Source: Candidatus Saganbacteria bacterium
Lineage (GTDB): Bacteria > Margulisbacteria > WOR-1 > XYC2-FULL-46-14 > WPAF01
Assembly (NCBI GenBank): GCA_016223205.1
Contig: JACRPM010000008.1
Coordinates: forward strand, 1-51,240
Direction: 5' to 3'
Length of the DNA stretch: 51,240 nt
Shown here: in pieces, positions 31,543 through 51,093 of the stretch
Layout: each line of letters opens with the position of its first letter
Position numbering within the stretch: position 1 is the first letter of the stretch
Notes under the pieces: model-generated
Told to the model about the DNA's origin: nothing
The model's input: only the letters and a program-made list of their open reading frames with translations
Database searches by the model: none
Program-made: the position numbers and the translations under genes

Positions 31543-34068
31543 ATGCTGGTTAAAAAATTCGGACTGGCCGCTATCCTGGTTTTATGTCTTTTTACCATTG
31601 GTCAAAGCTCCGTTCCGGAAAGGATTTCCTACGAAGGGAGGTTGACCGACGCTTCGGGCAATCCCGTAACCACCGCTAAGACCATCGAATTCCGCATCTA
31701 TGATGCGGCCACCTCCGGCACTGCGGTCTGGGGCCCCGAAAGCCACTCCGTCACGCCTGACAGCCAGGGAGTTTTTAGCGTCATACTGGGCGGCACCACA
31801 GCTTTGACCTCTTCGGTCTTTAACAACGCGACCCGCTATATCGATATCACGGTGGGAGGAGAAACTCTCTCTCCCCGCACCCAGATCGTGAGCGTGGGCT
31901 ATGCCTATAAGGCCGCCTCGGCCCAGGGCGTTGAGAACGGCTCGATCACCCGCCTAAGCGTCGCCTCCGGCCAATTCGTTAAACAAGTCATCGCCGGTTC
32001 CGGCGTTTCGGTTTCGGGGGACGAAGGATCGGGCACCGGGCTGGTTACCATCACGGCGGTCGGCACCGCGGGCGGCACCGTCACATCAGTTGGCACCGGA
32101 ACCGGTTTGACCGGTGGGCCCATCACTTCGAGCGGCACGATCTCTCTGGCCACCCCGGTCAGCGCGACCAATGGCGGCACCGGACAAAGCACTTATGCCA
32201 CTGGAGATATTATTTATTCTTCGGCGACCAATACTTTATCCAAGCTCCCGGTCGGCTCTACCGGCCAGGTGTTGAAAGTAAACGGCGGGATTCCCAGCTG
32301 GGGTACGGCGGGTGGGACCGGAACCGTTACCCAGGTGGATACCGGCACCGGATTGACGGGCGGCCCCGTCACCACCACCGGCACTATTGCCATCGATTCA
32401 ACGGTTGCCACTTTAACGGGAACTCAAACTTTAACCAATAAGACCATTTCGGATGCGAGCAATACCATTTCTCTTTCAGCCGGGACCATTCCCAATCTGG
32501 ATGCCTCAAAGATAACCACGGGCACTTTTGCCGAGGCGAGGGGAGGGACGAGCCAATCAACTTACACAACCGGTGATATTCTTTATTCTTCAGCCGCGAA
32601 TACCTTATCCAAGCTCCCGATCGGCACTGCCGGCCAGGTATTGAAAGTTAGCGGCGGGGTGCCCAGCTGGAGTGCGGCCGGAGGGACCGGAACGGTTACT
32701 TCGATCTCCGCAGGACCCGGAATCACCGCCACTCCCGATCCCATCACCTCCACCGGCACCATCTCTGTGGATGCGACGGTGGTCACACTTAACGCGGCGC
32801 AGGCCCTGACCAATAAAACCCTGGGCACGACCAATTCCATTGCGGCGCAGGCGCTGACTTCGGGCACCCTGTCCGATGCCAGAGTAGCGCAGAGCAACGT
32901 AACCCAGCACCAGGCGGCGCTCTCCTTGAATGCCAGCCAAATAACGGCCGGTACGCTTACCGAGGCGAGGGGCGGCACCAATCAATCCTCATACGCGACC
33001 GGAGATATTCTTTACGCCTCCGCGGCAAACACATTGTCTAAACTGCCGGCCGGATCGAACGGACAAGTATTGAAATTAAGCGCTGGAGTCCCCAGCTGGA
33101 GTGCGGCCGGAGGAACCGGGACCGTTACTTCGATCTCCGCAGGACCCGGCATCACCGCCACCCCCGATCCAATTACCTCTACCGGCACCATTTCGGTAGA
33201 TGCCACGGTAGTTACCTTAAATGCCGTCCAAACTTTGGCGAACAAGACGCTGACAACTCCGACCATTGCCAATTTCACCAACGCCAACCACACCCATGCC
33301 AATGCGGCGGGTGGCGGACAAATTTCTCATACCAACCTGACCAACATCGGGACCAATACCCATGCGCAGATCGATACTCACATTGCGGATAGCGCGGGGG
33401 TGCACGGGGTGACCGGGAATGTGGTCGGCGATACGGATACCCAGACCCTCACCAACAAGACCATCTCCGGCGCCAGCAATACGATTACCGGCGTTACCGG
33501 CATCCCATCTAACATTCAGGTCTTTACCACCAGCGGAACCTGGACAAAACCGGCCAATATTTCAACGGTCTACGTGGAAGTTTGGGGTGGTGGCGGAGGT
33601 GGTACAAGTGGCGCGGCTAATCAGGGTGGTGGCGGTGGTGGTGGCGGTGGTTATAGTGCTGGGTTGGTCTCTGTCACCGGTAACGTGACGGTGACTATTG
33701 GAGCCGGCGGCACAGCCGGTAATGCCGGCAGCGCCAGCAGTTTTGCCGGCGCCTCTACCCTTACGGGAAATGGAGGATCGGTGGGTGGTACCGGTGGTGG
33801 GGCTGGAGGAACAGCTACCGGCGGGACGATTAATTTAAGCGGAGCAGCAGGCGGTCCGGGAGAAGGTAACGACGGCGGTGGTGGTGGCGGCGGCGGCGGA
33901 AGTCCAAAAGGTGGGGCAGGCGGAGGTGGCGGTCCGGGTGCTAATGCTTCTAATCCTTCCACGGCCGGAGGCGCAGGCACACGGCCGGGTGGCGGTGGTG
34001 GCGGCGGAAGCGAAAGCGCCGGGACGGGTGGAACTGGTGGAGCGGGGCTAGTCATAGTAAGCTACTAA
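31543..34068 (+). CDS. Secreted phage-tail-fibre-like surface protein
   Basis: An 841-residue protein with a signal peptide ([17 protein letters not shown]). Residues 22-125 form a domain with [17 protein letters not shown] and VSVGYAYKA, common at the start of secreted fibre-like proteins. The middle contains three to four repeats of [16 protein letters not shown] ... [13 protein letters not shown] followed by TLTNKT segments, as in phage tail fibres. The last 170 residues are glycine-rich ([20 protein letters not shown] onward), like tip domains of adhesins. AGGGAGGGG precedes the ATG. There are no phage genes nearby, and the downstream genes are surface proteins, so it is likely a host adhesin or appendage. 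Confidence 0.8.
32185..33240 (+). repeat. Long direct repeats inside the tail-fibre-like gene
   Basis: Three units start near 32200, 32570 and 33000 (TATTCTTCGGCGACCAATAC-like sequence followed by AAGCTCCCG). The second and third share long near-identical stretches from the GATATTCTTTA start through ACCGGCACCATCTC. This is a likely site of unequal recombination and of assembly errors. Confidence 0.75.
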
Positions 34069-35205
34069 GTGAAAAACTTTGTTTTAACATTGGTATTCCT
34101 GTTTGCCGTTCAAGCCGGGGCTTTCGGGGCATCATCCAGCGCCGGCTACCGGATGACGACCGAAATTCTGGATAGCGGCGCGGCGAGCGGTAGTTCCGCT
34201 TCTTATAGATTGTTAGGCAAGGCCCGTGAGCGACAGCAGGGCACACCCTCTTCAACTAATTTTATTATCGGTGAGGGCTTTCTGCGGAGCGTTTATTTTT
34301 CTACTGTCGTTCCGGTCCTCTCCCCAGTGGTTACCTCGATCAGCCCGGCAGCCGGGGTGAACACCGGAGCAGTGACCATCACCGATCTTTCGGGCGCCAA
34401 TTTTCAATCAGGGGCTTCAGTTAAGTTGTCTAAAAGCGGACAGGCCGATATTTCCGCGACCAGTGTGGCGGTCGTAAGCTCGAGCAAGATCACCTGCACC
34501 CTCAATATCACGGGGGCGGCGGGCGGGCTGTGGAACGTGACGGTCATCAATCCCGACGGCCGCTCGGGCAGTTTGCCTTCGGCCTTTAATGTGACCTATC
34601 CGGCGCCGGCGATCGTCTCGATCACCCCCGCCAAGGGCAATAATGACGGAACAGTAAATATCACCGACCTGGCCGGGACCGGTTTTCGCTCCGGAGCAGC
34701 GGTAAAGCTTTCTAAGACCGGCGAAAGCGATATCCTGGCCGACAGCGTGGCGGTCGAATCCTCGACCAAGGTCAGCTGCCGGCTCAACCTTACCGGGAAA
34801 ACGGTGGGGGCCTGGGACGTGACGCTCACTAACGACGATAACCAAGCTGCCACAATGTCTGGCGGCTTTAAGATCGAGGCCCCGGGCCTGCAGGTGATCG
34901 GCGCCGTGGTCAGTACCCAGAATCCTTATAATCCGGCCACCGGCACGACCACCATCAAATACACCCTAAGCAAAGATGCCAACATCAAGATCTTCGTTTA
35001 TAATCTACGGGGGGAGAGGGTCTGGGAATGGACGGCGCCCTCCGGCGGCTCGGGCGGCCAGGCCGGGGTAAATGAGATCGTCTGGGACGGCATGACCGCC
35101 TTCAAATCCAAGGTGAGCTTCGGGGTCTATATCGTTTCTGTGGTTGCGACCGACGGCGGGCAGGTAAAGGAATTGGCCAAGACCAAAATAGCGGTGATAA
35201 AATGA
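34069..35205 (+). CDS. Secreted protein with two TIG-like domains and a FlgD-type tail
   Basis: A 378-residue protein. A signal peptide (VLTLVFLFAVQAGAFG) is followed by a region containing SSAGYRM and ASYRLLG, then two IPT/TIG-like domains (about 85-175 and 178-270, each with ITDL-(S/A)-G ... F-(Q/R)-SGA-x-VKLSK), and a C-terminal FlgD_ig-like tail starting near QNPYNPATGTT and ending KTKIAVIK. Its GTG start directly follows the stop of the tail-fibre gene, and its stop overlaps the PorV-like start as ATGA. A parallel pair exists at 134-1360, so this tail/PorV pairing is repeated. Confidence 0.82.
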   Translation: MKNFVLTLVFLFAVQAGAFGASSSAGYRMTTEILDSGAASGSSASYRLLGKARERQQGTPSSTNFIIGEGFLRSVYFSTVVPVLSPVVTSISPAAGVNTGAVTITDLSGANFQSGASVKLSKSGQADISATSVAVVSSSKITCTLNITGAAGGLWNVTVINPDGRSGSLPSAFNVTYPAPAIVSITPAKGNNDGTVNITDLAGTGFRSGAAVKLSKTGESDILADSVAVESSTKVSCRLNLTGKTVGAWDVTLTNDDNQAATMSGGFKIEAPGLQVIGAVVSTQNPYNPATGTTTIKYTLSKDANIKIFVYNLRGERVWEWTAPSGGSGGQAGVNEIVWDGMTAFKSKVSFGVYIVSVVATDGGQVKELAKTKIAVIK

Positions 35206-36182
35206 AAAGATATTTTCCGATAGTTTGTTTTTTGTTATTTGTTTTTTGTAATTTATCCCAGGCCGCGGTGATCGGCTCCACCGACGACGCCATGACCATC
35301 GGAGGCGGAGCCCGTCCCATCGGCATGGGAAGGGCTCACGTTGCCATAGTGGAAGACGCCGACGCGCCCTTCATCAATCCCGCCGGATTGGCCGCCATCA
35401 AGGGGCCGCAGGCCATGTCCATGTTCACCAACCTCTTGGGCGAAGTTTATTACAGCGAAGTGAGCGGCGCCGTGCCCACCCAAAACGGCACGGTGGGTGT
35501 GGGCTACATCACCACCGGGGTCAATAATATCCCCACTGCCGGGACGCCCACCGATTATTACGACTCCCTCCTGCTTTTCTCTTACAGTGTTCCCTTGGGA
35601 AGGTTCTTCAATTACGGGCGCAATGTTTTTTTAGGGGCCAATTATAAGATCTTCAACCGCGGCTATACCGGAGGGGTGAACCAATACGCCACCGGCCAGA
35701 GCGCTGATTTTGGCATGAAAGTGATCCTTTCGCCTAATTTGAGTTTGGGTTTCTGCCGCCAGAACATCCTGCCGGTGTCCATGGGCGGAGTGATACGTTT
35801 AAGCGCGGGGGCCGAAGAATCGCTGGCCAGTTTAGTCAAGATCGGAGCGGCGATCAAGCCCACCGTCCTGCCCAAAGTAGTGATAGCGATCGATTCGGAC
35901 TTGCCCCAGCAGACCGGCCGTCCGGTAACCTCGCACCTGGGGGTCGAGTGGGAAGCGAACGATTACCTGATGCTTAGGGCGGGAGCGGACCAGAGCGTCG
36001 ATCCGGGGTCCACCGGCCTGGCCAGCTGGAACCCTTCCTACGGCACTTCGCTCGGCTATAAAGGATTTCGGATTGATTACGCCTATCACGCGTATTATAA
36101 TGACCCTGCGCTGGCGACGCACTATGTTTCTTTGTCATATATCGGCGCGCCCTGGTACGCGCTCAAAGGAAGGACTGAATAA
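35202..36182 (+). CDS. PorV/UPF0164-like outer-membrane barrel
   Basis: A 326-residue protein with a signal peptide (YFPIVCFLLFVFCNLSQAA), the GGGARPIGMGRAHVAI and DADAPFINPAGLA motifs of the PorV/PorQ-like FadL-type barrels, and strand-rich sequence to the end. In Bacteroidota, PorV shuttles type IX cargo proteins that carry C-terminal sorting domains. The upstream gene encodes a FlgD-type tail, so an analogous shuttle role is plausible but unproven. Intact counterpart of the truncated gene at 596. Confidence 0.82.
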   Translation: MKRYFPIVCFLLFVFCNLSQAAVIGSTDDAMTIGGGARPIGMGRAHVAIVEDADAPFINPAGLAAIKGPQAMSMFTNLLGEVYYSEVSGAVPTQNGTVGVGYITTGVNNIPTAGTPTDYYDSLLLFSYSVPLGRFFNYGRNVFLGANYKIFNRGYTGGVNQYATGQSADFGMKVILSPNLSLGFCRQNILPVSMGGVIRLSAGAEESLASLVKIGAAIKPTVLPKVVIAIDSDLPQQTGRPVTSHLGVEWEANDYLMLRAGADQSVDPGSTGLASWNPSYGTSLGYKGFRIDYAYHAYYNDPALATHYVSLSYIGAPWYALKGRTE

Positions 36183-37714
36183 CGATTAAATTATTCGGCC
36201 GGTTCGCATTAATTTTTCTCTTGATCATGGCGGCTGCAACTCTTGCGGCGGCCCAGATCACCCCTCTGCCCGGAACCCCGGCCCGCACCTACCTGCCCGG
36301 AGATTTTGTCCAGGTGATAGTCGAAGCCCCAGTGGATACCGCGCAGATCACGGCGCTGATGCCGGATGGAACGGTGATCGGCTTAGTCCAGCAGCGCCGC
36401 ACCAATGTTTGGCGCGGCATCTGGCAAGTGCCGATCAATTTTAAGGCCGGCGACTATGCGGCCAAACTCCAGGCCGTGGACCTCGAAGGCAATATCTTTG
36501 AGGGACAAACCGATAACTTTACAATTGGAGCGCTGGCCATGATCACCCTGGTGGGCAAACCCACGGTTGAGGCCGCTCCCACCCGGCCCATCCAGCAGAC
36601 CTTAAAAACCGAACAGGTGGTAAAAGAGACCGGCCAGGTTGAAAAAACCGTAACCGTCGCTCCCTCCGCGGCGCCCGCGCCCGACCTGTCTCCCCGCACC
36701 CGGCAAATCTTGATCGAGAAAAATCTGGATGCCGGCAAAGGGAACCTTACCCGGGGGAACCTGGCATCGGCCGCCGCCAATTTCCGCATCGTGCTGTATC
36801 TGTCCCCCGATCACGAGGAGGCCAGCTCACTGCTGGCCGATACCCAGCAAAAATTGGAAATACAAAGACAGGAAGCCGGCCGAAGAAATCTGCTGATCTG
36901 GGCGATCTCGCTCATAGCGGTCCTGGTTGTAATTGCCCTGGTCTTCTACCTGGCCATGGTTTTAACAAGCTGGCGAGTTCAGCCGGCGATCACGGTGGTT
37001 GCTCCCTCCGCGCCCCCGCCTTTGACCAAAAAAGAGCAGGAAAGCCAATGGTGCGGCAAAGCAGGTTGGAAGAACAATCCCTTCACTTTCGATATATTCA
37101 AGGAGATCTTCACCAGCTCGGACCGGTTGGAGGTGGAAGGGCTGAAGGCCGCCATCCGGGGCCGGATCGAAAGCGTGGGGGGGAAGGGGATCGACCCCTT
37201 TACCGATTCGGCGATCGACCAGATCCACGCGCTTTCCCACGGCAAGCTCAAGGCTGCGCTCAAGATCTGTGATTGGGCGGTAGAGCGGGCGATCGAACAG
37301 GGCTCCGGCCAGATCACGGCGGAGATCGTTAAAAGCTATGAAAAGATCGGTTTGAGGAAGATATTGGTCGCGGACGATGAAGAAATAATCCGCGCCAGTT
37401 TGGAGGCCATCCTCAAAAAAGCCGGCGGTTACGAGGTGGATCTGGCCATAGACGGTGAAGAGGCCCTCAAGAAGATAAAGGAGAACCTCTACGGCGCAGT
37501 ACTGCTAGATATAGAAATGCCCAAGCTGGACGGCTACGAAATATTGAAACAAGTCCGACCCCTTTATCCTGATCTCCCTATTATTTTTGTGACCGGCAAG
37601 GGGATGCCGGAAAAGACCATGGAAAGCCTTACCCAGTTCAACCTGACCGGCTATATAGAAAAACCCTTCACCCCGGAAAAGGTCCTGGACACCGTGGCCC
37701 GGGCTTTGAAGTAG
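36179..37714 (+). CDS. Membrane-anchored receiver protein with periplasmic Ig-like domain
   Basis: In order: signal-anchor-like LFGRFALIFLLIMAAATLAAA, an Ig-like domain (residues 35-125), a Pro/Ala linker, a TPR-like pair (170-230), a transmembrane helix (237-262), a segment like the lid of ExeA ATPases (about 285-390, FTDSAIDQIHALSHGK ... ITAEIV) and a complete receiver domain (from KILVADDEE, D444 in LLDIEMP, K495 in EKPF). No canonical start precedes the signal sequence; ATA at 36179 has GGAAGG five bases upstream and would overlap the previous stop, while TTG 36221 or ATG 36227 cuts the signal. The start is therefore uncertain. It adjoins an ExeA-like ATPase. Confidence 0.7.
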   Translation: MTIKLFGRFALIFLLIMAAATLAAAQITPLPGTPARTYLPGDFVQVIVEAPVDTAQITALMPDGTVIGLVQQRRTNVWRGIWQVPINFKAGDYAAKLQAVDLEGNIFEGQTDNFTIGALAMITLVGKPTVEAAPTRPIQQTLKTEQVVKETGQVEKTVTVAPSAAPAPDLSPRTRQILIEKNLDAGKGNLTRGNLASAAANFRIVLYLSPDHEEASSLLADTQQKLEIQRQEAGRRNLLIWAISLIAVLVVIALVFYLAMVLTSWRVQPAITVVAPSAPPPLTKKEQESQWCGKAGWKNNPFTFDIFKEIFTSSDRLEVEGLKAAIRGRIESVGGKGIDPFTDSAIDQIHALSHGKLKAALKICDWAVERAIEQGSGQITAEIVKSYEKIGLRKILVADDEEIIRASLEAILKKAGGYEVDLAIDGEEALKKIKENLYGAVLLDIEMPKLDGYEILKQVRPLYPDLPIIFVTGKGMPEKTMESLTQFNLTGYIEKPFTPEKVLDTVARALK

Positions 37715-38527
37715 ATGTATCTTGAGCACTGGAAGTTAACCGAAAAACCATTTGAGAACACCCCCGATCCCCGTTTTATTTTTTGGTCCAAGCGGCACGA
37801 AGAAGCCCTTTCCCGCATGTTCTACGTCATCAAGGAGAAAAAAGGCGCCGCGCTCATCAGCGGGGAATACGGCAGCGGGAAAACGCTCTTAACCCGGGTG
37901 CTGGTGGAGAAACTGGGAGAAGATGAATATGAGACCGCCCTGCTGCTCAACCCCATGCTTTCTCCCGCCCAACTTATCAAGGAGATAATCCACCAGCTGG
38001 GAGGGGAGGTCCCTTCTTCGGCCAACAAGGCGGTTTCTTTCAACCGCCTAAATGAGGTCCTGCTGGGCATCAACCGACAAAGAAAGCACGCCGTGATCAT
38101 AATCGATGAGGCCCAGGCCATCGCCCGCACGGCCAGCCTCGAAGAGTTCCGGCTGATGCTCAACTTCCAGCTCAATGACCGCTTTCTGCTTACCCTGATC
38201 CTTATCGGCCAGCCGGAGCTCAACGAGAAAATAAAAAAACTGCCCCAGCTGGAACAGCGCTTTGCCTTAAGGTATCACCTGACGGCGCTCGATGAGTACG
38301 AGACCGGGGAATACATCCGCCACCGCTTGTCGGTAGCGGGAGGGTCGTCAGACCTGTTTGAGGAAGAAGCCGTTGCCGAGATCTACCGGTTCACGCAGGG
38401 CATCCCCCGCAAGATCAACAACTTTTGCGACCTGGCGCTGCTTTTGGGGAGCGGGGAAGAGGCCATAAGCATCGACCTTCCCCTGATCAAGAAAGTGCTC
38501 GCCGATTATAAGGAAGAAGGGGCATGA
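37715..38527 (+). CDS. ExeA/GspA-like AAA ATPase
   Basis: A 270-residue ATPase starting MYLEHWKLTEKPFENTPDP, the typical opening of this family, with Walker A GEYGSGKT near residue 50, Walker B VIIIDEAQAI near residue 130, IGQPELNE and the arginine-rich QRFALRYHL, and the lid FTQGIPRKINNFCD. In type II secretion, ExeA with ExeB helps secretin assembly through peptidoglycan; in other systems the family has different roles. Here it has no fused peptidoglycan domain. ATG directly follows the stop of the receiver gene, and its own stop overlaps the next start. Confidence 0.88.
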   Translation: MYLEHWKLTEKPFENTPDPRFIFWSKRHEEALSRMFYVIKEKKGAALISGEYGSGKTLLTRVLVEKLGEDEYETALLLNPMLSPAQLIKEIIHQLGGEVPSSANKAVSFNRLNEVLLGINRQRKHAVIIIDEAQAIARTASLEEFRLMLNFQLNDRFLLTLILIGQPELNEKIKKLPQLEQRFALRYHLTALDEYETGEYIRHRLSVAGGSSDLFEEEAVAEIYRFTQGIPRKINNFCDLALLLGSGEEAISIDLPLIKKVLADYKEEGA

Positions 38528-42006: not shown

Positions 42007-42015
42007 ATTTTAGCA
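42007..42015 (-). promoter_or_regulatory. Extended -10 promoter of pcm
   Basis: TGCTAAAAT on the minus strand, last base six bases before the GTG start. It overlaps the start of the divergent frame at 42015. Confidence 0.5.
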
Positions 42016-42725
42016 TGAAATTTTTGGTAAATGAGCCCGAAATACAATTGATGACAACCGTAAAATTTGAACGCCCCCTGCTCGAACCGCAAAGCAAATT
42101 CCCTCCGATCGGAGGGCATACGGACGAGCGGGGGATAATGCGCCGTGAATATCGCCGGTTAACCTCCGGGTTACATAATGAGTTTTGCAGACGAAATCCA
42201 ACCATGGATAGCCGCACCCTCTTTTATAAGCTAAAAATTGAGATCAAAGGCCTTTTTAACGATCCCGCCCTGTTGGCCATCTATCGAAGCGGGGAGGAAG
42301 GACATTTCCGGGATATGGCGGAGACCGCTTGGGTCGCCGGCGGAGCGGTGAATGCGCGCCTCCTTTATGTTCCGGATGTCAACGGTAGAGAAGCGGTCTT
42401 TTCGACCGGCGGATCGGTGCTGCATGCCGTTAATCTCCAGCAACATGACCTGGGATTATCCGCGGTAAGGAAGGGAACCTGGTACCGCTCCGCGGCGGTG
42501 GCGGCTTTGGGGGAAGGCGAACAGCCGATCGGCTCCCTGGTTTTGGCCTGGCAGCAAAAGCAGGAAATTTTACTGCACCATCCCGACGGCCGGATCGAGC
42601 AGAGGCGCGAGGACACCCGGAAACTGGATCCTTTTGTCCACCTGGAATTTTTAGCCATGATCGGCAGGGATTTGACCAACTTTTTTGCGAATAATCCACT
42701 GCTTTTGGCAAATTATCTTTTGTAA
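42015..42725 (+). CDS. Unknown protein with a GAF-like domain
   Basis: The frame codes for 236 residues. The first 63 look unstructured and cross a 16-bp palindrome (CCCTCCGATCGGAGGG, 42101-42116), so translation could instead begin at ATG 42204 (MDSRTLFYKLKIEI). Residues 64-236 follow a GAF-like order: helix, strands around ARLLYVP, a loop, SAAVAALGEGEQPIGSLVLAW and a final helix (LAMIGRDLTNFFANN). No ligand residues can be assigned. It leads to the next gene (25 bp) and then the giant gene, all in one direction, so the three may form one unit. Confidence 0.6.
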   Translation: MKFLVNEPEIQLMTTVKFERPLLEPQSKFPPIGGHTDERGIMRREYRRLTSGLHNEFCRRNPTMDSRTLFYKLKIEIKGLFNDPALLAIYRSGEEGHFRDMAETAWVAGGAVNARLLYVPDVNGREAVFSTGGSVLHAVNLQQHDLGLSAVRKGTWYRSAAVAALGEGEQPIGSLVLAWQQKQEILLHHPDGRIEQRREDTRKLDPFVHLEFLAMIGRDLTNFFANNPLLLANYLL

Positions 42726-42750
42726 GTAATTCTATTGGAGGATCAAAATA

Positions 42751-43509
42751 ATGGTTAGCGGCGTTTCCGAAAGAAGAGGGTCGGTAGATAGACGATTTAT
42801 AAGGCCGCTCCCTAAAACCACTCTGACCAAACTCGAAATGCAGAGGAGGTATGAGAGCGCATTATATCTTACCCAAAGCGTAAGTAAAAACAAACTGATA
42901 AGATGCAAAAGCGTTGAGGAATTTCAGGCCTTAATTCGCGAAGCCCTCATCTATTTGGTTTCGGAAAACGACGCTTTAAACGTCCGCCGGCCCAACTTCC
43001 CGCAAGAAAGGATCCACGTTTTTCAAAAAGCAAGAAAACTGGAAGATTGCCTGCCTTTCGAGCTGATGGATATTGTCCAGGCCGCACTGCAGGATAATCG
43101 TTTGATCTACATCGGCGATACTGCTTTCGGCGAAGGCGAAGCCGACCCGGAAATCCGCGCCCGCAGAAGCGTCGTTTATTCGATCGCCGAAGCTTTGATC
43201 CCCAAAAGAACGCCACGTGGCATTATCGTTAAAGATACGATAATTGAAAGGGGCTTCCTTGAGGCGCTGGGCATATCCCGGGAACAGGTCCCATTACGAA
43301 TCAGATTGGCCGACGGATCGATCCAAGAATGCCCCTCCCTTTTGGTCCTTCCTTTTGTTTCGGTCAGGGGGACGATTGATAATTTAATAAAAGAGGAGGT
43401 TGGGGGCGCGGTGGTGGTGGGTCTAAAGCCGGAATTCCTTAATCCGAGGGTCGACCTGGAGCCCCTTCGCCTTTTGGGCATAGAGGTCGGTATGCATTTT
43501 AACTTATAA
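42751..43509 (+). CDS. Unknown protein with a GAF-like domain
   Basis: A 252-residue soluble protein. A basic N terminus (SERRGSVDRRF) is followed by a helix and a GAF-like fold: IVQAALQDNRLIYIGDTA, SVVYSIAEALI, LVLPFVSVRGTIDNLI, GGAVVVGL and LLGIEVGMHFNL. TTGGAGGATC gives a strong ribosome-binding site before ATG 42751. Its resemblance to the GAF-like gene just upstream may mean ancient duplication. No catalytic or DNA-binding motif seen. Confidence 0.65.
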   Translation: MVSGVSERRGSVDRRFIRPLPKTTLTKLEMQRRYESALYLTQSVSKNKLIRCKSVEEFQALIREALIYLVSENDALNVRRPNFPQERIHVFQKARKLEDCLPFELMDIVQAALQDNRLIYIGDTAFGEGEADPEIRARRSVVYSIAEALIPKRTPRGIIVKDTIIERGFLEALGISREQVPLRIRLADGSIQECPSLLVLPFVSVRGTIDNLIKEEVGGAVVVGLKPEFLNPRVDLEPLRLLGIEVGMHFNL

Positions 43510-43532
43510 CAGGCCCTGAAAAAGTGACCGCG

Positions 43533-43601
43533 TATAATACAAGTTTACCCCTCTAAATACCGATATATATAGTAGAAAAGACGCTATTAATATTTAGCGT
43601 C
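43533..43601 (+). promoter_or_regulatory. Leader region of the giant gene with -10 box and hairpin
   Basis: TATAAT at 43533-43538 and a second -10-like TATAGT at 43568 lie upstream of the giant gene. GACGCTA (43580-43586) and TAGCGTC (43595-43601) form a 7-bp stem around TTAATATT, followed by an AGAGGA ribosome-binding site and ATG 43624. It may be an operator or mRNA structure; -35 boxes are weak. Confidence 0.45.
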
Positions 43602-43623
43602 AGATTCCCAAAAAGAGGAACAA

Positions 43624-46600
43624 ATGGCAGAGCCCAGAGCCCTAAATCCATATAACCAACCCCCGGTCCCCGGGATAAGACAGCCGGTCGTAAGACCGAA
43701 TGATCGGCCGTCCGCCCAGGCGCCCTCTTCGGAAATACCCGATTTTGTCGATCCTTTGGATACGTACACCCCTTCTAGTGGAGCTACTGCGGCCACCTCT
43801 CCCACCTTACCGGCCGATACCATCGACCAATCGCAAGCATTATATCCCCAGGACCGCACGGGATCATTAGGCAGTGATGCCTTTATTGGCCTAACCGAAT
43901 CCGGATTGATGAACGGCCAAAACGTCAGCTGGCTGCTGGTCAATTTCTCGGGCGTTAAATGGATCAACGATCATTGGGGCCATGAGGCCGGAAACGCCTA
44001 TTTGCTGCGCGTTAAAGCTATCCTGGAGGAAACAATCGGCGCCCCGGTCCAAATTGTACGGCAGGGACCGAACTTTGCCGTATTGCTTCCCGAAAATGTT
44101 GATGCCGCCGCGGTCATGCGGAGCCTGGAAGGGAAACTGCGTGCCGGCGTTGATTTCACCTACCTCCGCCGTCATAGTGATGGAAGAGCGGAGATCGTCC
44201 CCGCCTCTTATACCGCCGCCACCGAAGGGCGCTCCCGGATCTTTAACCAAGAATTGTTGGTATACGACGCCACCCAGCAATATTCTTTTGAGGCGATCTT
44301 CGCCGGCCTTAGGGAAGAGACCTATTACCTGAACCGCCCGGAAATGGAATATGCCCGCTACACCATTCCCCAGTTGATCGGTAATGGATTATTTCAAATG
44401 GTGATCCTTGATCCCCAAAGATTAAGCACCCTCAATCTTGAAGAAAGGTTGGTTGGGAGCGAGATCCCCGCTTACCGGGAAGACGCGATCGGCAGCTTGA
44501 CCGAAAACCGCAGCGGCTCGGAAAACGTGCGGGCGCTCGAAGGCGACGCCCTGAACCTGCTTCTCGAAAGCGGGCGCACACAGCTGGCGGTCATCGACCT
44601 TAACGCTATCGGCGCTTTCCGCTCTCTGGGACCTTTGGGCGACCTGATGATCGATGCGGTGCTGGAAGTCAGGGTTCTTGAAGCGGCGCAAGTTTTAGAA
44701 GGCACGGGCATTACCCTTTATCGGCATGGCGGCGGCTCGGAAGAGTATTATCTGGCGGGGGATGTCAGCGAAGAGCAGATGGCCAACGCAACCCGGCAGT
44801 TCCTGGAGGCGCTGAATGCCGAACCGCTGGTTCTGCGCGTCGAAGTAAGCGACCTCGAAAGCACCGCGATGGGACGCCGGACTTTGGAATATTTAAAGGA
44901 GACCGGCCAGTACCAGCCCTACCAACATACTTTTGAGAACGGCCAAAGCGCTCAAGTGGTAGACGTAGATCTTACCCGGGTGACCAGGGGGATCCTCCAA
45001 CCCGACGGAACGTATAAGACCTTTCTTGGATTATCCGGAACCGCGGCAACCGGCGAGATCCGGCGGCCGGCTGACGGGGAAATATTAGAGATTCGGCCGG
45101 AATTTAGGAATAATCGTTTTGGTGTGATATTGGAGGCCTTTGCCCGCGGACGGGACGCTGTGATGGAATTGGTGGAACAAGCCAAACCGAATAATCCGAA
45201 CCGAGACAACCTGATAGTAAAAGCCGGCCCCTATCGCGGCACAGAAACCATGTTTCGGGATGGCGCAGAAGGGATCTCTCCGGATAACCTCCTGACCCTG
45301 ATAACTCATTATCGCAGTAACATTCCTCGCGGAACAATTGAGCTTTACTCCGATGCCGACGGCCGGATCAGCTTTGAGCCCGGCGCCGGCCGATCCTTTT
45401 CGATCCGCATAACTATTATCGACGGGCCGCAGGGGGCTCCTTATCTTCAGTCGCTGGAGGTGGGCGAAGAATTAAGGCGGGAGTCGCCCCGCACAGAACG
45501 AATTCTCGTGGGAAGCTTGGCCAGGATAAATCGGGCATTACTTATTAATGTTATCTCTTGGCTGGGCAACTCCAAACAAAGCCAAGGCCGGCAATTAGCC
45601 CTTATTGCACAAGAACTAAACGAATTTACAAGAGAGCACCCCATAGAAACAACGGTTCGTTCCTCCACTCCTGCTCCGGTGGCGGATAACTATCCCCGCC
45701 CAACCAATCCCGATCCCTTCAGCGGGGAGCCGCCCCGAAGTGCGGATGTCCGGGCGATGAGGGGAGGGCCCTTTTATCGTAGTGGGACTCCGGAGGGGGT
45801 TATGGCGCCGCAGCCGGCTGCTGCTCCCGTCGGCACTCCCTCGGTTAACGACCTTTATACCCGGATCAGGAATATTGGGCCCAACAACCAGCCCTGGTAC
45901 ATGTCCCTTATCCCCGCGGAGATCGCCGCGACCTATACCCCAGACCAGATCTCGGTCGCCGTCGAAGATGGGCAGATAGTCATCGAAGCGCATCCGAACG
46001 GCCAACCGGTCAGCTTCCGCATTAAGCTTAAGGTCTATCCGGAGGGGGGATTCATTGAGATCACCGATGTCGATGTGATGTTGACCGGCGGGGTAGGGGA
46101 ATCGAATTTCGCCGCCCAGGAACTTACTGTCGTCAACCGATTACTGGAGGGACTAAGGCAGATCGGCGCGGCTTCTCAAGGGGCTTATCAGAATGTATTC
46201 ATAAACGGGGTCAGCTCCTACTATGAACTTTATACCCTGGCTTGGTCAGGGTTCAGCTATGTCGGGGATGCAGCCACTGCGGCCCAGGTCCGTGCCCAAG
46301 TTGCGCAGATCGAAAACCAGGTCTTACAGGCCATTGTCGACGGCCAAATAAATATGACCGGAGACCGCGCGCAGGATTTGGTGACCATAAACCAATACAT
46401 TATCGATAATAATCTCTGGCCGAACGACCTGCAAATGGGCGGAAGGATCACCGCCGATGCGATACCTCCGATCGGAGCCGAACAGTGGGCTCCGGTAGCC
46501 GCCAGCGCGGTACCCTCAACCCCCAGGGTGCCCATAGAGCCGGGACAAACGATGATCTATTATTACAATTCAACTTGGTTTTATTCCGTCACCATGGCGG

Positions 46601-49600
46601 CAGACGGTCAAAGCGTCACCTTATCCAATAAATACAGTACCGTCGAAATTCATGAGGGGATCCCGGATATTGGGGCCGGGATTAGGCCGTTCATGATCTA
46701 CCTTAAGGACGGCCAATTATACATGGCCGATCAATCAAGATTACCGTCCCATCAGGCGACGTCCAACGGACGACCGCTGCAAATGGGCGAGACGATCATT
46801 TACTACCGGGATGCAATAGACCCTACAATTGATTATCGGGCTGGAATAGCCCAGCAAATGCATTTGCCGGGAACGGCCGAGGTATCTTATCTGGGCTATA
46901 AATACACCTTGCTTTCTTTGTCCGAGGGCCATATTCAAATAACCAGGCAATCTCCTTCCGGAGAAATTGTTAACTTAGGTGAACTGGGGTTAAACGAAAA
47001 TTTCGGACCATTTTTTGCCGGCCCCAGCGGCGTAGTCTTCTTCCCATACGAAGCAACCGTTCAAGGAATAAATTTGGTAAGCCCCGGGCCGGAGGCGGTA
47101 TTACCGGCGGCCCCAACGGCTGATCTTTTTGACCACGGTATTTATACCTCGGCTACTTATATTTCTTTGAATCGCTATTTACTTAGTTTACATCGCGATG
47201 CCAGCTGGGTAAATGTTAGTTTTGATTTAGACCAAGTGGAAGGCCAGATCTCGGCCGAGTTGAGAGATAAAATTCAAGTGCAGATCTATGAAAGGTTGTG
47301 GGCCATCGCCAAAGAAGCGGGTATTTCTTCTCCGGTGATCGTCATGGAAGGGGATAGTTTTTCGATCTCTATCCCCGACATATTGGGGCCGGAAGTGAAG
47401 GAGCAAATTAAGGCCGCGATAGATCAGGCCTTGGCCATGGGAATTAGCGCAACTTATGTTACGACCGATGCGGAAAACGGGACCAAGTTCAATTTAATTG
47501 AATTGCAGGGACAAACCGCTGTGGTCACTTTTGATTCCCGGCAAAGCCATTCCGACGCCGAACTGTTGGCGGCTTTATCGCCGGAAATTACTGTTGAAAA
47601 TCCGGCAACTATAGAAGGGATACCCATTTCGATGGAGGGGGCCGATCTTTTGGCTCAAACCGGGGCCGACCTGGTCCGGTTGCTCGGCGCAATAGAGGCC
47701 GAACAAAATCTGGGAATTAAGGTTTCCGAAATAGTTTTCAGAAACGGTTATTTCGAGCTTATTGGTGAAGGCGGAAATCTGATCGATCTGGACGGAGTGG
47801 CCCTGGAATCAGCTTCAGGCATGCCCGACCTGGAACTTAGGGCTAATATCCACACGGCCATAAGATCACTAAGAGAAAGCGGAGTTGGTTTAACCGGCGT
47901 CTTTGTTGACGGCGGCAATTTCATGATCTACGGCACAAATAACCGGCCGATCAATGTGAACGGCATGCTGTTTAAGTTGAGCGGTGAAATACCCGGCAAT
48001 CTAAACCATGCGGCCTTAATGCAGGCCTGGGATCTGGCCAGTGGTATGAACCTCAATCCGATCGGGGCGGTCGTTCATGGGGGCGGCTCATTTGAAATAG
48101 AATTGGATAGCGGGCATGTTTTAGATCGACTGATGCTTGAAAAGATCAGCCTCGCCTGGGAACAGAGCAGGCTGCTCGGATTAAACCCGGCGAGCGTAAA
48201 TGTGCTAAGCGAGCATTTTGAGATCATAAATGCAGAGGGGGAAGTTGTTGATCTGATCGGCTTCGCCCAGAACGGCGGATTGACCCCGGAGCAGATCGCC
48301 ACCCGCACACCGGACGAGCTCCGCGCCATGGCGGCAGCCGATCTTAGGGCGTTTAATCCGGAATTATTCGTTGCGCCCGGAGAATATAGAACCATCAAAA
48401 TAGGAGAAAATCTCCTGCGCGTGGTTAACCTGGGCGGGCGGTACATGGTAGCGGTGAGCCCGGAAGGGGCGGGCCAAGATTTGGTCTGGCAGCCTTTGCC
48501 TTTATCCGGAGAATTGGCGCTGGATGGCGGCCGGGTGATAGTCGGTCTGGAAAATGGAAATGTTTCAGCCAGAACGGTGGATGTTCAAGCCGAACTTACC
48601 GCAAGCTTTGCGGCTTTATTGCAGGCCGGGAATGCTCAATTAAATCCCGGAGTGAATAATTTAAAGATCGAGAATGGCCGGGTGCGCCTCGCAACCGAAA
48701 GGGAAGTGCCCGACGCCTTTTTGACCCTGATGCCCAGCGGCCGGCTCGGGGTGGTCATCGCCAACCAGGATTATGAAGGTCTTCAGGAAGGATTCTCAAG
48801 CTTGGTGCGCGATTATAACAGCGCCCTTGCAACCCCGACCGCAAATTACGCCGGCGTGCCGCCGATGGAGCCGATAGCTCTGGTGATGCCGGAGGGCTTT
48901 GAAGACCTTAAATATCGCATCGGCAATGAGGCGGCGGAGATTTTGGCGCCGCATCTGGCCGGGCAGGAAAGACTCGATACGCGCGGCCTGATCCGCGCCC
49001 TGCGCAAATTCCGGGATACCGGAGAGATCACCGGCGCTTTGGCCGAACTGGACATGCCCACAGAGCAGTTGGAGCAGTTGCAGGGTGAGCTGATCGAAGT
49101 GCACGGGGATTATGTCCGCGGACGAGTTTATCGTTTCGGGAAGATCGAAGAGGCGATAAACAACGGAGAATCCATGGATCAGGCGACTATCGAAGCCAAC
49201 CTCGAAACCCTGCGCCGCATCGCGGCCCAGCCCGATCTGGCCGCGCTTATCGGTGCCGATCGCCTGGCTGCCTTACAAACCAAATTGGAAGCCAAATTAT
49301 CAACGACCCCGGGACCCTCTGCTCCCGCTACTCCCATCGCCAACCCGATCATTGCGGTTTTAATGAACGATTATCATCTTACCGCGGCTCAAGTGGAGCT
49401 GGTCATGCGCCTTTTTACCGAGCAGGGATTGAGCGAGCAAGAATTTATCTCGAAGCTGGCGGAGATCGCACCCGATCTGGCGGCCAACGTCAGCCAGCTC
49501 AAAGAAAAGTTGAACCAGGCCATATTGGCTCAATTAACCGCCCGTGCAGCCGCTGATCCAGAGGCCGCCGCCCGCCTGCAGGAACAATTTGCAATGCATG

Positions 49601-51093
49601 GCGGTCGGTTGGGGGTGAGCGATATTGTATCCGAGATCGGCCAGGAATATTTACAGGAAGATTTACAAAATGGAATAGCGGCGGTGTTGGGATCAAACAG
49701 CCCGATCCTGCAATTCCTTCTCGAGCCGGTTGTGGAAGCGGAATTCTGGACCTCCTTGGCGCGTGGCCAGTTCGGCGCATTGAAAGAATTTTTCTCGACC
49801 AGCATGCCGGCCACCGGAGCGGGCATCGTGGGCGCCAGTGTTTATAACGTCCTGCTGAACATATTTGGGGTTTCCAAAGACAGCTGGGCGCGGGGAGTGC
49901 TGCCGCAAGTAACGGTCGGGGTTTTAAGCGCCATGAGCTATACGGCGCTGGCGAGCGGTACTGCGACCAGCACCTTGGGGCGGACCTTAAGCCGATTGCT
50001 CTCTAATCCTGTGACCCAAAGATTATTTGTGGCGCTATCGCTAAACCCGATCATAACCGATGGGGTCGCGCGCCTGTTCGGAGTTACGGATGAATTTGAA
50101 GTGGGCGGCAGGATAGCGCGCCAATCGCATCCTCTCGCTTACGATATTATTTCCTCCCTCCCGGGCGTGGGGAAAGAATACGCAACGGGCCTGATCAACA
50201 TATTTGATCCCGATGCCACCTATGATTATGAGATGGGATTAGCGGAAAGGTCCGCCCAGGCGGAGATCACCGGCCAAAATATAATTGACGCGCTTTCCGC
50301 CTTGACCCTGCTCTATATCGCGCAGAATCCCCCGGTGTTTAATCCCGAACTTTACGGAGACATACCGCACCTGGAAATAACCGATAATCCGGAGGTGACG
50401 GACCCGGAATATTACCGGCAATTGGTCGGCTACCTATCTCAAGCGATCGCCGCGCAGGGGCCGCAGGGTTTTGATCCTGCCTTGCTCGGGGGGACCGAAG
50501 AACTCCTGCCGCTCCCGCCCGCCGGGCTAAACCTGGCAGAGGCGGCCTATACCATGCTGGTGGGAATAGGATCAGGGGCGGATATTTCGGGTCAAATACC
50601 CGTCTACCAGGCGCTGGGGCTGATGGATGGACAAGGCCGGCCGATCGAAGGCAATTCTTATGTTGAGGAAGGCCGGCAGCTCTTGGCTTCCCGCCGGCAG
50701 AACGAAGAGGAGACGGGCTTGGTCCATGAGATCGCCCGCTTCATCGAACATGAGGGAGCAGAGGCGATCGATCTTATCCAGGATACCAACCGCGAGGTCG
50801 ACCAGGCCGAGGTCACCGGACTGATCCCCACCATCGATGTCAACCTGCCCATGGAATTGCTGGCTGATATCCGGGGAGTGGAGAATATCGATCCCGCCCA
50901 ATTGATGGAATATGTGATCGAACAAAATCAGGAAGCTATCGACGACCTTAAAGCCGCCCAGCAGAAGATCATCGATACCCTGCGACTGATCTCCCGCGCC
51001 CTGGCCGGGGAAGCGGTGGATATCGACTTCAGCGATCCCACGGTCCAGGCCGTATTAAAGTACCTGAAAAACCGCCTGCCCGCCCAACCATAA
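43624..51093 (+). CDS. Giant multidomain protein of unknown function (2489 residues)
   Basis: No signal peptide; a Pro-rich start to about residue 75. Residues 78-180 follow a GGDEF order (FSGVKWINDHWGH, then RQGPNFAVLLPE at the signature position, so catalytic residues are missing). A second such module lies near 300-400 (VIDLNAIGAF, YRHGGGSEEYYLAG) and a third near 1180-1290 (VSFDLD, MEGDSFSISIPD). Segments near 976-1055 (ending SNGRPLQMGETIIYY) and 1575-1650 look FHA-like. Four tandem repeats of about 50 residues lie at 1350-1549. Three hydrophobic stretches occur near 2060-2160, then a helical end. A strong AGAGGA site precedes ATG. Function unknown. Confidence 0.75.
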   Translation: MAEPRALNPYNQPPVPGIRQPVVRPNDRPSAQAPSSEIPDFVDPLDTYTPSSGATAATSPTLPADTIDQSQALYPQDRTGSLGSDAFIGLTESGLMNGQNVSWLLVNFSGVKWINDHWGHEAGNAYLLRVKAILEETIGAPVQIVRQGPNFAVLLPENVDAAAVMRSLEGKLRAGVDFTYLRRHSDGRAEIVPASYTAATEGRSRIFNQELLVYDATQQYSFEAIFAGLREETYYLNRPEMEYARYTIPQLIGNGLFQMVILDPQRLSTLNLEERLVGSEIPAYREDAIGSLTENRSGSENVRALEGDALNLLLESGRTQLAVIDLNAIGAFRSLGPLGDLMIDAVLEVRVLEAAQVLEGTGITLYRHGGGSEEYYLAGDVSEEQMANATRQFLEALNAEPLVLRVEVSDLESTAMGRRTLEYLKETGQYQPYQHTFENGQSAQVVDVDLTRVTRGILQPDGTYKTFLGLSGTAATGEIRRPADGEILEIRPEFRNNRFGVILEAFARGRDAVMELVEQAKPNNPNRDNLIVKAGPYRGTETMFRDGAEGISPDNLLTLITHYRSNIPRGTIELYSDADGRISFEPGAGRSFSIRITIIDGPQGAPYLQSLEVGEELRRESPRTERILVGSLARINRALLINVISWLGNSKQSQGRQLALIAQELNEFTREHPIETTVRSSTPAPVADNYPRPTNPDPFSGEPPRSADVRAMRGGPFYRSGTPEGVMAPQPAAAPVGTPSVNDLYTRIRNIGPNNQPWYMSLIPAEIAATYTPDQISVAVEDGQIVIEAHPNGQPVSFRIKLKVYPEGGFIEITDVDVMLTGGVGESNFAAQELTVVNRLLEGLRQIGAASQGAYQNVFINGVSSYYELYTLAWSGFSYVGDAATAAQVRAQVAQIENQVLQAIVDGQINMTGDRAQDLVTINQYIIDNNLWPNDLQMGGRITADAIPPIGAEQWAPVAASAVPSTPRVPIEPGQTMIYYYNSTWFYSVTMAADGQSVTLSNKYSTVEIHEGIPDIGAGIRPFMIYLKDGQLYMADQSRLPSHQATSNGRPLQMGETIIYYRDAIDPTIDYRAGIAQQMHLPGTAEVSYLGYKYTLLSLSEGHIQITRQSPSGEIVNLGELGLNENFGPFFAGPSGVVFFPYEATVQGINLVSPGPEAVLPAAPTADLFDHGIYTSATYISLNRYLLSLHRDASWVNVSFDLDQVEGQISAELRDKIQVQIYERLWAIAKEAGISSPVIVMEGDSFSISIPDILGPEVKEQIKAAIDQALAMGISATYVTTDAENGTKFNLIELQGQTAVVTFDSRQSHSDAELLAALSPEITVENPATIEGIPISMEGADLLAQTGADLVRLLGAIEAEQNLGIKVSEIVFRNGYFELIGEGGNLIDLDGVALESASGMPDLELRANIHTAIRSLRESGVGLTGVFVDGGNFMIYGTNNRPINVNGMLFKLSGEIPGNLNHAALMQAWDLASGMNLNPIGAVVHGGGSFEIELDSGHVLDRLMLEKISLAWEQSRLLGLNPASVNVLSEHFEIINAEGEVVDLIGFAQNGGLTPEQIATRTPDELRAMAAADLRAFNPELFVAPGEYRTIKIGENLLRVVNLGGRYMVAVSPEGAGQDLVWQPLPLSGELALDGGRVIVGLENGNVSARTVDVQAELTASFAALLQAGNAQLNPGVNNLKIENGRVRLATEREVPDAFLTLMPSGRLGVVIANQDYEGLQEGFSSLVRDYNSALATPTANYAGVPPMEPIALVMPEGFEDLKYRIGNEAAEILAPHLAGQERLDTRGLIRALRKFRDTGEITGALAELDMPTEQLEQLQGELIEVHGDYVRGRVYRFGKIEEAINNGESMDQATIEANLETLRRIAAQPDLAALIGADRLAALQTKLEAKLSTTPGPSAPATPIANPIIAVLMNDYHLTAAQVELVMRLFTEQGLSEQEFISKLAEIAPDLAANVSQLKEKLNQAILAQLTARAAADPEAAARLQEQFAMHGGRLGVSDIVSEIGQEYLQEDLQNGIAAVLGSNSPILQFLLEPVVEAEFWTSLARGQFGALKEFFSTSMPATGAGIVGASVYNVLLNIFGVSKDSWARGVLPQVTVGVLSAMSYTALASGTATSTLGRTLSRLLSNPVTQRLFVALSLNPIITDGVARLFGVTDEFEVGGRIARQSHPLAYDIISSLPGVGKEYATGLINIFDPDATYDYEMGLAERSAQAEITGQNIIDALSALTLLYIAQNPPVFNPELYGDIPHLEITDNPEVTDPEYYRQLVGYLSQAIAAQGPQGFDPALLGGTEELLPLPPAGLNLAEAAYTMLVGIGSGADISGQIPVYQALGLMDGQGRPIEGNSYVEEGRQLLASRRQNEEETGLVHEIARFIEHEGAEAIDLIQDTNREVDQAEVTGLIPTIDVNLPMELLADIRGVENIDPAQLMEYVIEQNQEAIDDLKAAQQKIIDTLRLISRALAGEAVDIDFSDPTVQAVLKYLKNRLPAQP
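47671..48270 (+). repeat. Four degenerate ~50-residue repeats within the giant protein
   Basis: Each unit has a helix (LGAIEAEQNLGI, AIRSLRESGVGL, AWDLASGMNLNP, AWEQSRLLGLNP), a strand ending in (F/H)-x-GG or N-G, and a strand with F-(E/M)-(L/I)-x ... followed by an (I/V)-(D/N) turn. DNA identity between units is low, so the duplication is old. Confidence 0.6.

What the first reader, a model, noticed from the sequence alone, without database searches (positions are those of the whole stretch)
42015..51093. Unrecognised three-gene cluster built from signalling-domain folds
Two small proteins with GAF-like organisation precede a 2489-residue protein with GGDEF-like and FHA-like modules. Sensor and cyclic-dinucleotide domains seem to have been re-used without catalytic residues, suggesting a large scaffold or sensing machine. 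I know of no described system with this composition. The domain assignments come from pattern reading by eye.
Basis: partly seen in the sequence, partly recalled or inferred. Interest (0 to 1): 0.78.

Follow-up and report, generated by a model that had tools for sequence, protein, structure and literature searches.

The report
Giant twin-cyclase protein with sensor partner
In ten related bacterial genomes a large protein that begins with two fused copies of a signal-making (GGDEF-type) domain, the first without its metal-binding acids and the second still with them, sits beside a small gene predicted to be a sensor, and the pair likely works as a nucleotide-controlled switch whose make-up I found in none of the papers searched.

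Summary
The three genes are real: 42051-42725, 42751-43509 and a 2,489-residue gene at 43624-51093. They belong to a linked, patchily distributed gene pair of one class of Margulisiibacteriota. Profiles of the large protein's N-terminal module and of the small GAF-like protein hit the same 8 of 74 genomes, adjacent in all 8; two more genomes carry bridging forms. The giant starts with two GGDEF-type palm domains. In 11 of 11 proteins compared, the first (D1) has Asn for the metal Asp and no acid in the motif, while the second (D2) keeps the metal Asp and the motif acids (GSEE[FY], or GGDEL). D2 also keeps the phosphate-binding Lys in 10 of 10 that reach it, even in a relative with one other lysine in 1,334 residues. 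So "without catalytic residues" holds for D1 and a third copy, not for D2. GAF has indirect support; FHA is not supported. Best explanation, inferred: a GAF-gated, asymmetric single-chain palm pair that binds and probably turns over a nucleotide and signals to a hydrophobic C-terminal domain. Activity, ligand, product and contacts are untested. New variant of a known kind.

The parts
42051..42725 (+). gene 1, GAF-like partner protein (224 aa from 42051; ORF opens at 42015)
   Evidence: ORF; homologue P0006, 84% identical, starts at 42051; found by the partner profile A7, of which it is a row
42751..43509 (+). gene 2, GAF-like partner protein (252 aa), GGAGG-type ribosome-binding site just upstream
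   Evidence: ORF; homologues 77% and 69% identical; sequence; partner family alignment, of which it is a row
43580..43601 (.). inverted repeat GACGCTATTAATATTTAGCGTC in the 114-base spacer before the giant gene; on the minus strand it looks like a terminator
   Evidence: sequence, pattern scan (5 such sites found, 2.9 +/- 1.9 expected by chance); function unknown
43624..51093 (+). giant gene, 2489 aa, no cysteine, 1.5% lysine
   Evidence: ORF; homologue P0005 68% identical; composition
43825..44349 (+). D1, residues 68-242: GGDEF-type domain, metal Asp replaced by Asn107, motif replaced by GPNF at 148
   Evidence: Pfam GGDEF E 7.8e-6; hhalign 97.6%; residue table
44494..45228 (+). D2, residues 291-535: GGDEF-type palm domain with metal Asp325, motif GSEEY 371-375, AK-NNPNR with Lys521
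   Evidence: hhalign 90% with controls; D2 of the bridging homologue in G059 is Pfam GGDEF; palm folds lead the list for the low-confidence model; residue table
44734..44748 (+). D2 active-site-type motif GSEEY
   Evidence: GSEE[FY] in 9 of 11 and GGDEL in 2 of 11
   Evidence: no Pfam match; 27% identical to a region of L020, FHA-like letters not kept
47128..47544 (+). D3, residues 1169-1307: third, fully degenerate GGDEF-type domain of the D1 kind
   Evidence: hhalign 96.1% to the D1 family, 5 shuffles at most 0.26%; only 3.4% to 5 ordinary GGDEFs and 0.3% to D2
49675..50322 (+). residues 2018-2233: hydrophobic, Gly/Ala-rich helical region shared with relatives, possibly membrane-associated
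   Evidence: hydropathy peaks 1.23-1.53; hhalign 87.7% to the C-terminal regions of 7 relatives, reversed control 0.09%

Best explanation
The large protein begins with two tandem GGDEF-type palm domains, the first (D1) without and the second (D2) with the metal-binding acids, and together with its GAF-like neighbours it likely works as a sensor-gated nucleotide-binding enzyme in which D2 would act on a nucleoside triphosphate and D1 would serve as its non-catalytic half. Shown: the tandem architecture, the residue pattern, the conserved gene pair, and the grouping of D1 and of D2 as two separate clades in the tree. Inferred: (1) D1 and D2 pack against each other as the two halves of an ordinary diguanylate cyclase dimer do, giving a single-chain pseudo-heterodimer. 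(2) D2 binds Mg and NTP through Asp325, the GSEE acids and Lys521, and probably catalyses one phosphoryl transfer. Its base preference is changed, because the base-binding Asn is lost in 8 of 10 D2 domains but kept in 11 of 11 D1 domains. (3) The GAF-like partner proteins bind a small ligand and dock on the palm pair to gate it. (4) The result is passed to the hydrophobic C-terminal domain of the same chain, and in one relative to a fused adenosine deaminase.
Confidence: 0.4

Rival explanations
1. Catalytically dead receptor or scaffold: the tandem palms only bind c-di-GMP or GTP and change shape, with the GAF proteins as co-sensors.
For: D1 and D3 are degenerate; the GGDEF motif of D2 is not canonical; degenerate GGDEFs such as PopA act as receptors (PMC3974145 passage); the genome has two other GGDEF genes well over the Pfam cut-off but PilZ is found in 0 of 31 and EAL in 0 of 31 genomes of the class, leaving room for another receptor.
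Against: A pure receptor does not need both metal-binding positions and the phosphate Lys, which D2 keeps in 11 of 11, 11 of 11 and 10 of 10, even in lysine-depleted chains. MshEN is present in 30 of 31 genomes and could serve as the c-di-GMP receptor.
Confidence: 0.3
2. Large structural or surface protein that carries relic signalling domains; the nucleotide machinery has no present function.
For: Very long, cysteine-free, repeat-bearing middle; the middle repeat region differs in length between the giant and P0005; lysine and cysteine depletion.
Against: No signal peptide is evident at the N-terminus (by eye). The D2 residues are conserved across domains only 16-44% identical to the window's. 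A small gene is kept beside the large one in 10 of 10 genomes.
Confidence: 0.13
3. NTPase or oligonucleotide-metabolising protein of the GdpP/YybT kind: D2 hydrolyses ATP or GTP and no signal is made.
For: A highly degenerate GGDEF of YybT has ATPase activity (PMC3974145 passage); the base-binding Asn is lost in 8 of 10 D2 domains.
Against: No DHH/DHHA1 or PAS domain found by Pfam; the tandem pair is conserved, which simple hydrolysis would not need.
Confidence: 0.1
4. Anti-phage or conflict system: cyclase and effector in one chain.
For: One relative (G065) fuses a cyclic-nucleotide-binding domain and an adenosine deaminase to the palm pair; PADLOC models CARF_ADA (5e-11) and PycTIR (6e-6) match those parts.
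Against: The matches are to common domains; 0 of the other 6 proteins scanned match PADLOC at E up to 0.01, including all three of the window. By eye the genes lie beside housekeeping genes (lon, valS, trpA-type; rRNA in two loci); their neighbours were not scanned for defence genes.
Confidence: 0.05

Closest known systems
GGDEF diguanylate cyclases (PleD, WspR, DosC)
   Same: Palm fold, first-strand Asp, G-x-(D/E)-E motif and AK-x-R segment in D2; D1 is GGDEF by Pfam
   Different: Two unlike copies in one chain; D1 lacks all metal ligands; D2 reads GSEE[FY] and mostly lacks the N335 base-binding residue; a separate GAF-like gene; up to 2,489 residues
Non-canonical active diguanylate cyclases VCA0965 (AGDEF) and ECA3270 (SGDEF)
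   Same: Active despite a changed first glycine (PMC3974145, abstract and passages)
   Different: There the first Gly position is changed, here the second; those act as identical pairs (recalled)
Degenerate GGDEF receptors (PopA, CdgA; named in PMC3974145 passage)
   Same: Loss of GGDEF catalytic letters, as in D1 and D3
   Different: D2 retains the metal and phosphate residues
Heterodimeric class III adenylyl/guanylyl cyclases and Cas10 palms (recalled)
   Same: One working and one non-working palm act together; class III cyclases appear in the structure list
   Different: No sequence-level match to them was found by Pfam, NCBIfam or PADLOC in the window's proteins
GAF-GGDEF protein of the same family of bacteria (G001, L002)
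   Same: GAF-looking and GGDEF-type domains beside each other (by eye)
   Different: There a single GGDEF-type domain (motif GGEEM); no detectable similarity of its GAF-looking parts to the partner family

Membership tests
GGDEF domain superfamily (Pfam PF00990) | profile match, D1 | tested here: met
   residues 97-167, E 7.8e-6, 26.2 bits over 23.8
GGDEF domain superfamily (Pfam PF00990) | profile match, D2 | tested here: met
   not by Pfam in the window; hhalign of 8 D2 rows to 5 ordinary GGDEFs 90%, score 46, controls at most 15.4; D2 of G059 Pfam E 3.5e-9 over cut-off; one clade with the bridging forms
active diguanylate cyclase | GG(D/E)EF motif, or (G/S/A)G(D/E)EF | tested here: not met
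   D1 GPNF, D2 GSEEY
active diguanylate cyclase | metal-binding Asp (PleD D327) and motif acid (E370) | tested here: met
   D2 only: 11 of 11; D1: 0 of 11
active diguanylate cyclase | base-binding Asn (PleD N335) | tested here: not met
   D2: 2 of 10 (only the two bridging forms); D1: 11 of 11
active diguanylate cyclase | base-binding Asp (PleD D344) | tested here: inconclusive
   invariant Asp344 in 10 of 10 by MAFFT, but hhalign places it four residues earlier
active diguanylate cyclase | synthesis of c-di-GMP | not testable with these tools
   needs assay
GAF domain | profile match | tested here: inconclusive
   window genes none; L024 partner GAF_2 0.003; G059 partner E 4.2e-5 (GAF_3), 5.9e-5 (GAF_2), 0.0034 (GAF), all below curated cut-offs; G059 partner to partner family hhalign 82%, 5 shuffles at most 0.15%; two GAF-looking G001 proteins 0.1% and 0.3%
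FHA domain | profile match and conserved FHA letters (letters recalled) | tested here: not met
   no Pfam FHA at E up to 1; letters not kept in L020; the fold itself could not be tested, model too poor
Cas10 / type III CRISPR, CBASS, Pycsar | PADLOC profile match | tested here: not met
   0 families at E up to 0.01 for the three window proteins
GdpP/YybT | degenerate GGDEF with DHH-DHHA1 domains (recalled) | tested here: not met
   no DHH match in the giant or the relatives scanned

The most novel reading that the evidence does not exclude
A single-chain, asymmetric GGDEF heterodimer: D1 holds a base but cannot catalyse, D2 catalyses one bond, so the pair makes a nucleotide signal other than c-di-GMP, gated by a separate GAF protein and read by domains of the same chain (a membrane domain here, an adenosine deaminase in G065). 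It would be the GGDEF counterpart of heterodimeric adenylyl cyclase.
Probability: 0.22. Interest if true: 0.85.

Novelty: new variant of a known kind. Interest (0 to 1): 0.56.

Why it matters
Diguanylate cyclases are described as two GGDEF domains, each holding one GTP, that must pair (PMC7825114, abstract in the listing). Here an unequal pair in one chain is fixed in 10 of 31 genomes of a class of a phylum described as a neighbour of the Cyanobacteria (PMC6349859, abstract in the listing), with a separate predicted sensor gene. If D2 is active, the family would show how a symmetric cyclase can become a pseudo-heterodimer and could yield a new nucleotide signal. The lysine-depleted relatives give an unusual natural test, because the nucleotide-binding lysine survives where nearly all others are gone. 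The claim is directly testable with a fragment of about 490 residues.

Tried and rejected
FHA module: rejected. Riboswitch control: at Rfam's gathering thresholds only rRNA and tRNA were found in the window and eight relatives' loci (L025 left out). Defence-system reading: weak. Structure of gene 2 with 3 rows: pLDDT 33.6, useless, not searched. Structure of giant 60-1189 with 2 rows: pLDDT 33.5. Two parts are less poor: giant 350-449, in D2, block means 45-62, and 740-819, block means 49-63, unassigned. Foldseek had no hit at E 0.001, and the second look is low-confidence support for D2 only. Contig-level linkage in the protein database: apart from the window's own entries, no two homologues of the three genes report the same longest-contig length, so linkage is not shown for the closest relatives. 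The 743-kb contig that holds a gene 1 homologue gave no gene 2 or giant homologue, which counts against strict linkage of gene 1, or reflects a divergent large protein beyond this word-based search, which returned none of the class relatives. Scans of genome contigs with A1 and A3 and of viral contigs with A1 found no relative. Self-comparison of the giant gave weak repeats, of which D3 was followed up.

Rows dropped or defective: one search held two out-of-frame D1 rows (G054, G059), which are meaningless and were replaced. L024 ends before the D2 Lys and is left out of that count. P0005 is in the residue table but not in A8 or. The ordinary GGDEF set was only the 5 domains a pattern (GG[DE]EF and AK..GRN) found in loci held. 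The 28 window ORFs of the lysine comparison were picked by hand from the ORF list.
Full report
What is there. The window is one whole contig of a 1.57-Mb draft genome, 92% complete. A homologue's database name places it in Margulisiibacteriota. The three ORFs of the finding exist at the stated coordinates. Gene 1 most likely starts at 42051, where its homologue P0006 starts. Genes 1 and 2 are 25 bases apart, gene 2 and the giant 114. The giant is not an artefact: P0005, 2,362 aa, is 68% identical across it.

Domains by profile. Pfam gives one GGDEF at residues 97-167 of the giant and nothing convincing in genes 1 and 2. P0005 also shows GGDEF, just under the cut-off. No relative of the giant came from two contig collections, nor of gene 1 from genome contigs.

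Relatives in the class. A profile of the giant and P0005, run over 74 genomes of the phylum, had matches in 10. In two of these (G001, G066) the match is a protein with a single GGDEF-type domain. The other eight are the window's genome, six with related large genes, and G063, first hit only weakly in its C-terminal part. Reading their surroundings showed a 205-246-residue gene directly upstream on the same strand in five loci, and a 256-residue one downstream in G008. An alignment of these small proteins with genes 1 and 2 and their homologues and one of the tandem module were used as new profiles. The module was found at E below 1e-60 in 8 of 74 genomes, the small protein in the same 8 of 74, always adjacent; G063 was in neither training set. 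If the two families were placed independently, the chance of the same 8 of 74 is about 7e-11; this ignores relatedness. Apart from a second piece of the G063 gene, the module profile's other matches (E 4e-13 or weaker) cover only D1 positions. Most of these were not read; five loci among those held gave the set of ordinary GGDEF domains, and one match led to G054. None of the 8 genomes lies outside the class of 31.

Bridging forms. The match in G054 and one found with it in G059 carry the same layout: a small gene, a degenerate D1, and a D2 that reads GGDEL. In G059 the large gene is on two contig ends, taken to be one gene. D2 of G059 is a Pfam GGDEF at E 3.5e-9, and its small partner matches three GAF models at E 4e-5 to 0.003, below their cut-offs. 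The G054 partner has no Pfam match and is only weakly similar to the family. With these, 10 of 31 genomes of the class hold the pair, adjacent in 10 of 10, small gene upstream in 9 of 10.

D1 and D2. Against 5 ordinary GGDEF domains of the phylum, the D1 family scores 97.6% and the D2 family 89.9% in hhalign; one reversed and five shuffled controls each stay at or below 0.55% and score 16.4. PleD residue roles are from a passage of a review (PMC7288161). In D2 the metal Asp is Asp in 11 of 11, the third and fourth motif letters are acids in 11 of 11 (GSEE[FY] in 9, GGDEL in 2), and the lysine that lines up with K442 is present in 10 of 10 that reach it. The N335 Asn is kept in 2 of 10 D2 domains. 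In D1 the metal Asp is Asn in 11 of 11, no motif acid is left in 11 of 11, and the N335 Asn is kept in 11 of 11. A tree puts D1 (96/91) and D2 (96/92) each on one side of a branch, and the GSEE group at 99/99; several D1 branches are long, and the G054-G059 pairing in D1 is flagged as a possible long-branch join. So the tandem is probably older than the split of these families. A third copy, D3 (1169-1307), resembles D1 (96.1%) and is fully degenerate; it scores only 3.4% against ordinary GGDEFs.

Lysine test. The giant has 1.5% lysine against 6.7 +/- 1.8% (lowest 2.1%) for 28 other ORFs of the window. Some large relatives have 0.1-0.5% (L020, L021, L024, L029, L069), others do not (L079 9.3%, L070 7.0%, L025 6.4%, L023 4.9%, L026 3.9%, L027 1.9%). 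In G063's 1,334-residue protein the only lysine beyond a probable leader is the K442 equivalent. This is strong sequence evidence that D2 still needs it.

C-terminal region. Residues 2018-2233 hold moderately hydrophobic helices and match the corresponding region of 7 relatives (87.7%, reversed 0.09%). It is absent from the large proteins of G008 and G054. Whether it enters a membrane is not known.

Cellular setting. The genome has two other GGDEF genes, adjacent on another contig, well over the Pfam cut-off. In the class PilZ is found in 0 of 31, EAL in 0 of 31, MshEN in 30 of 31 and HD_5 in 10 of 31 genomes, the window's genome not among the 10. A c-di-GMP system is therefore possible, with MshEN as the likely receptor.

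Interpretation. The best-supported reading is a sensor-gated, asymmetric tandem palm in which D2 handles a nucleotide and D1 is the silent half. The conserved Lys and acids favour binding, and probably turnover, over a dead scaffold. The lost N335 and the GSEE motif argue against ordinary c-di-GMP synthesis. Which nucleotide, which product, and what the C-terminal part does are inference. Library searches for Margulisbacteria with GGDEF (0 papers), tandem with degenerate GGDEF (6), two GGDEF domains with diguanylate cyclase (14, 10 listed), and GSEEF with GGDEF (0) showed no description of such a pair in the listings. One paper on the phylum was searched for six terms and holds none. This library lacks most subscription journals.

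Noticed in passing
L026:4164-9452 (genome G065): The large protein of this relative carries, before the palm pair, a cyclic-nucleotide-binding domain (Pfam 3.7e-7) and an adenosine deaminase domain (1.5e-21): a possible sensor and effector fused to the same module.
   Followed up: partly
window 43624-51093; L020, L021, L024, L029, L069: Lysine desert: 0.1-1.5% lysine with 5-7% arginine in these large proteins, while most neighbouring genes have about 4-10% (a few ORFs beside L020, L021 and L029 are also low, 0.5-1.3%); cysteine is absent from the giant, P0005 and L020. Cause unknown.
   Followed up: partly
class of 31 genomes: GGDEF genes occur but PilZ and EAL are found in none of 31, MshEN in 30 of 31: a reduced c-di-GMP toolkit.
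   Followed up: partly
L020:2-4396 and L022:3-506 (genome G058): A 1,465-residue protein running off a contig end matches the giant's C-terminal third but shows no D1-D2 match in the profile search; a small piece on another contig matches the giant's very end. Not joined.
   Followed up: no
window residues about 1330-1550 of the giant (47611-48273): Several copies of a strand-rich unit (like LGIKVSEIVFRNGYFELIGEGGNLIDL); P0005 is shorter there (by eye).
   Followed up: no
window 43580-43601: Inverted repeat in the spacer before the giant gene, terminator-like on the minus strand.
   Followed up: no
window 31543-38527: Run of genes with a glycine-rich domain, TIG and FlgD-type Ig domains, a response regulator and an AAA ATPase, perhaps a secretion or pilus cluster.
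   Followed up: no
P0006 (database contig of 743,329 bases): Homologue of gene 1 on a long contig for which no gene 2 or giant homologue was returned; its neighbours could not be read.
   Followed up: no
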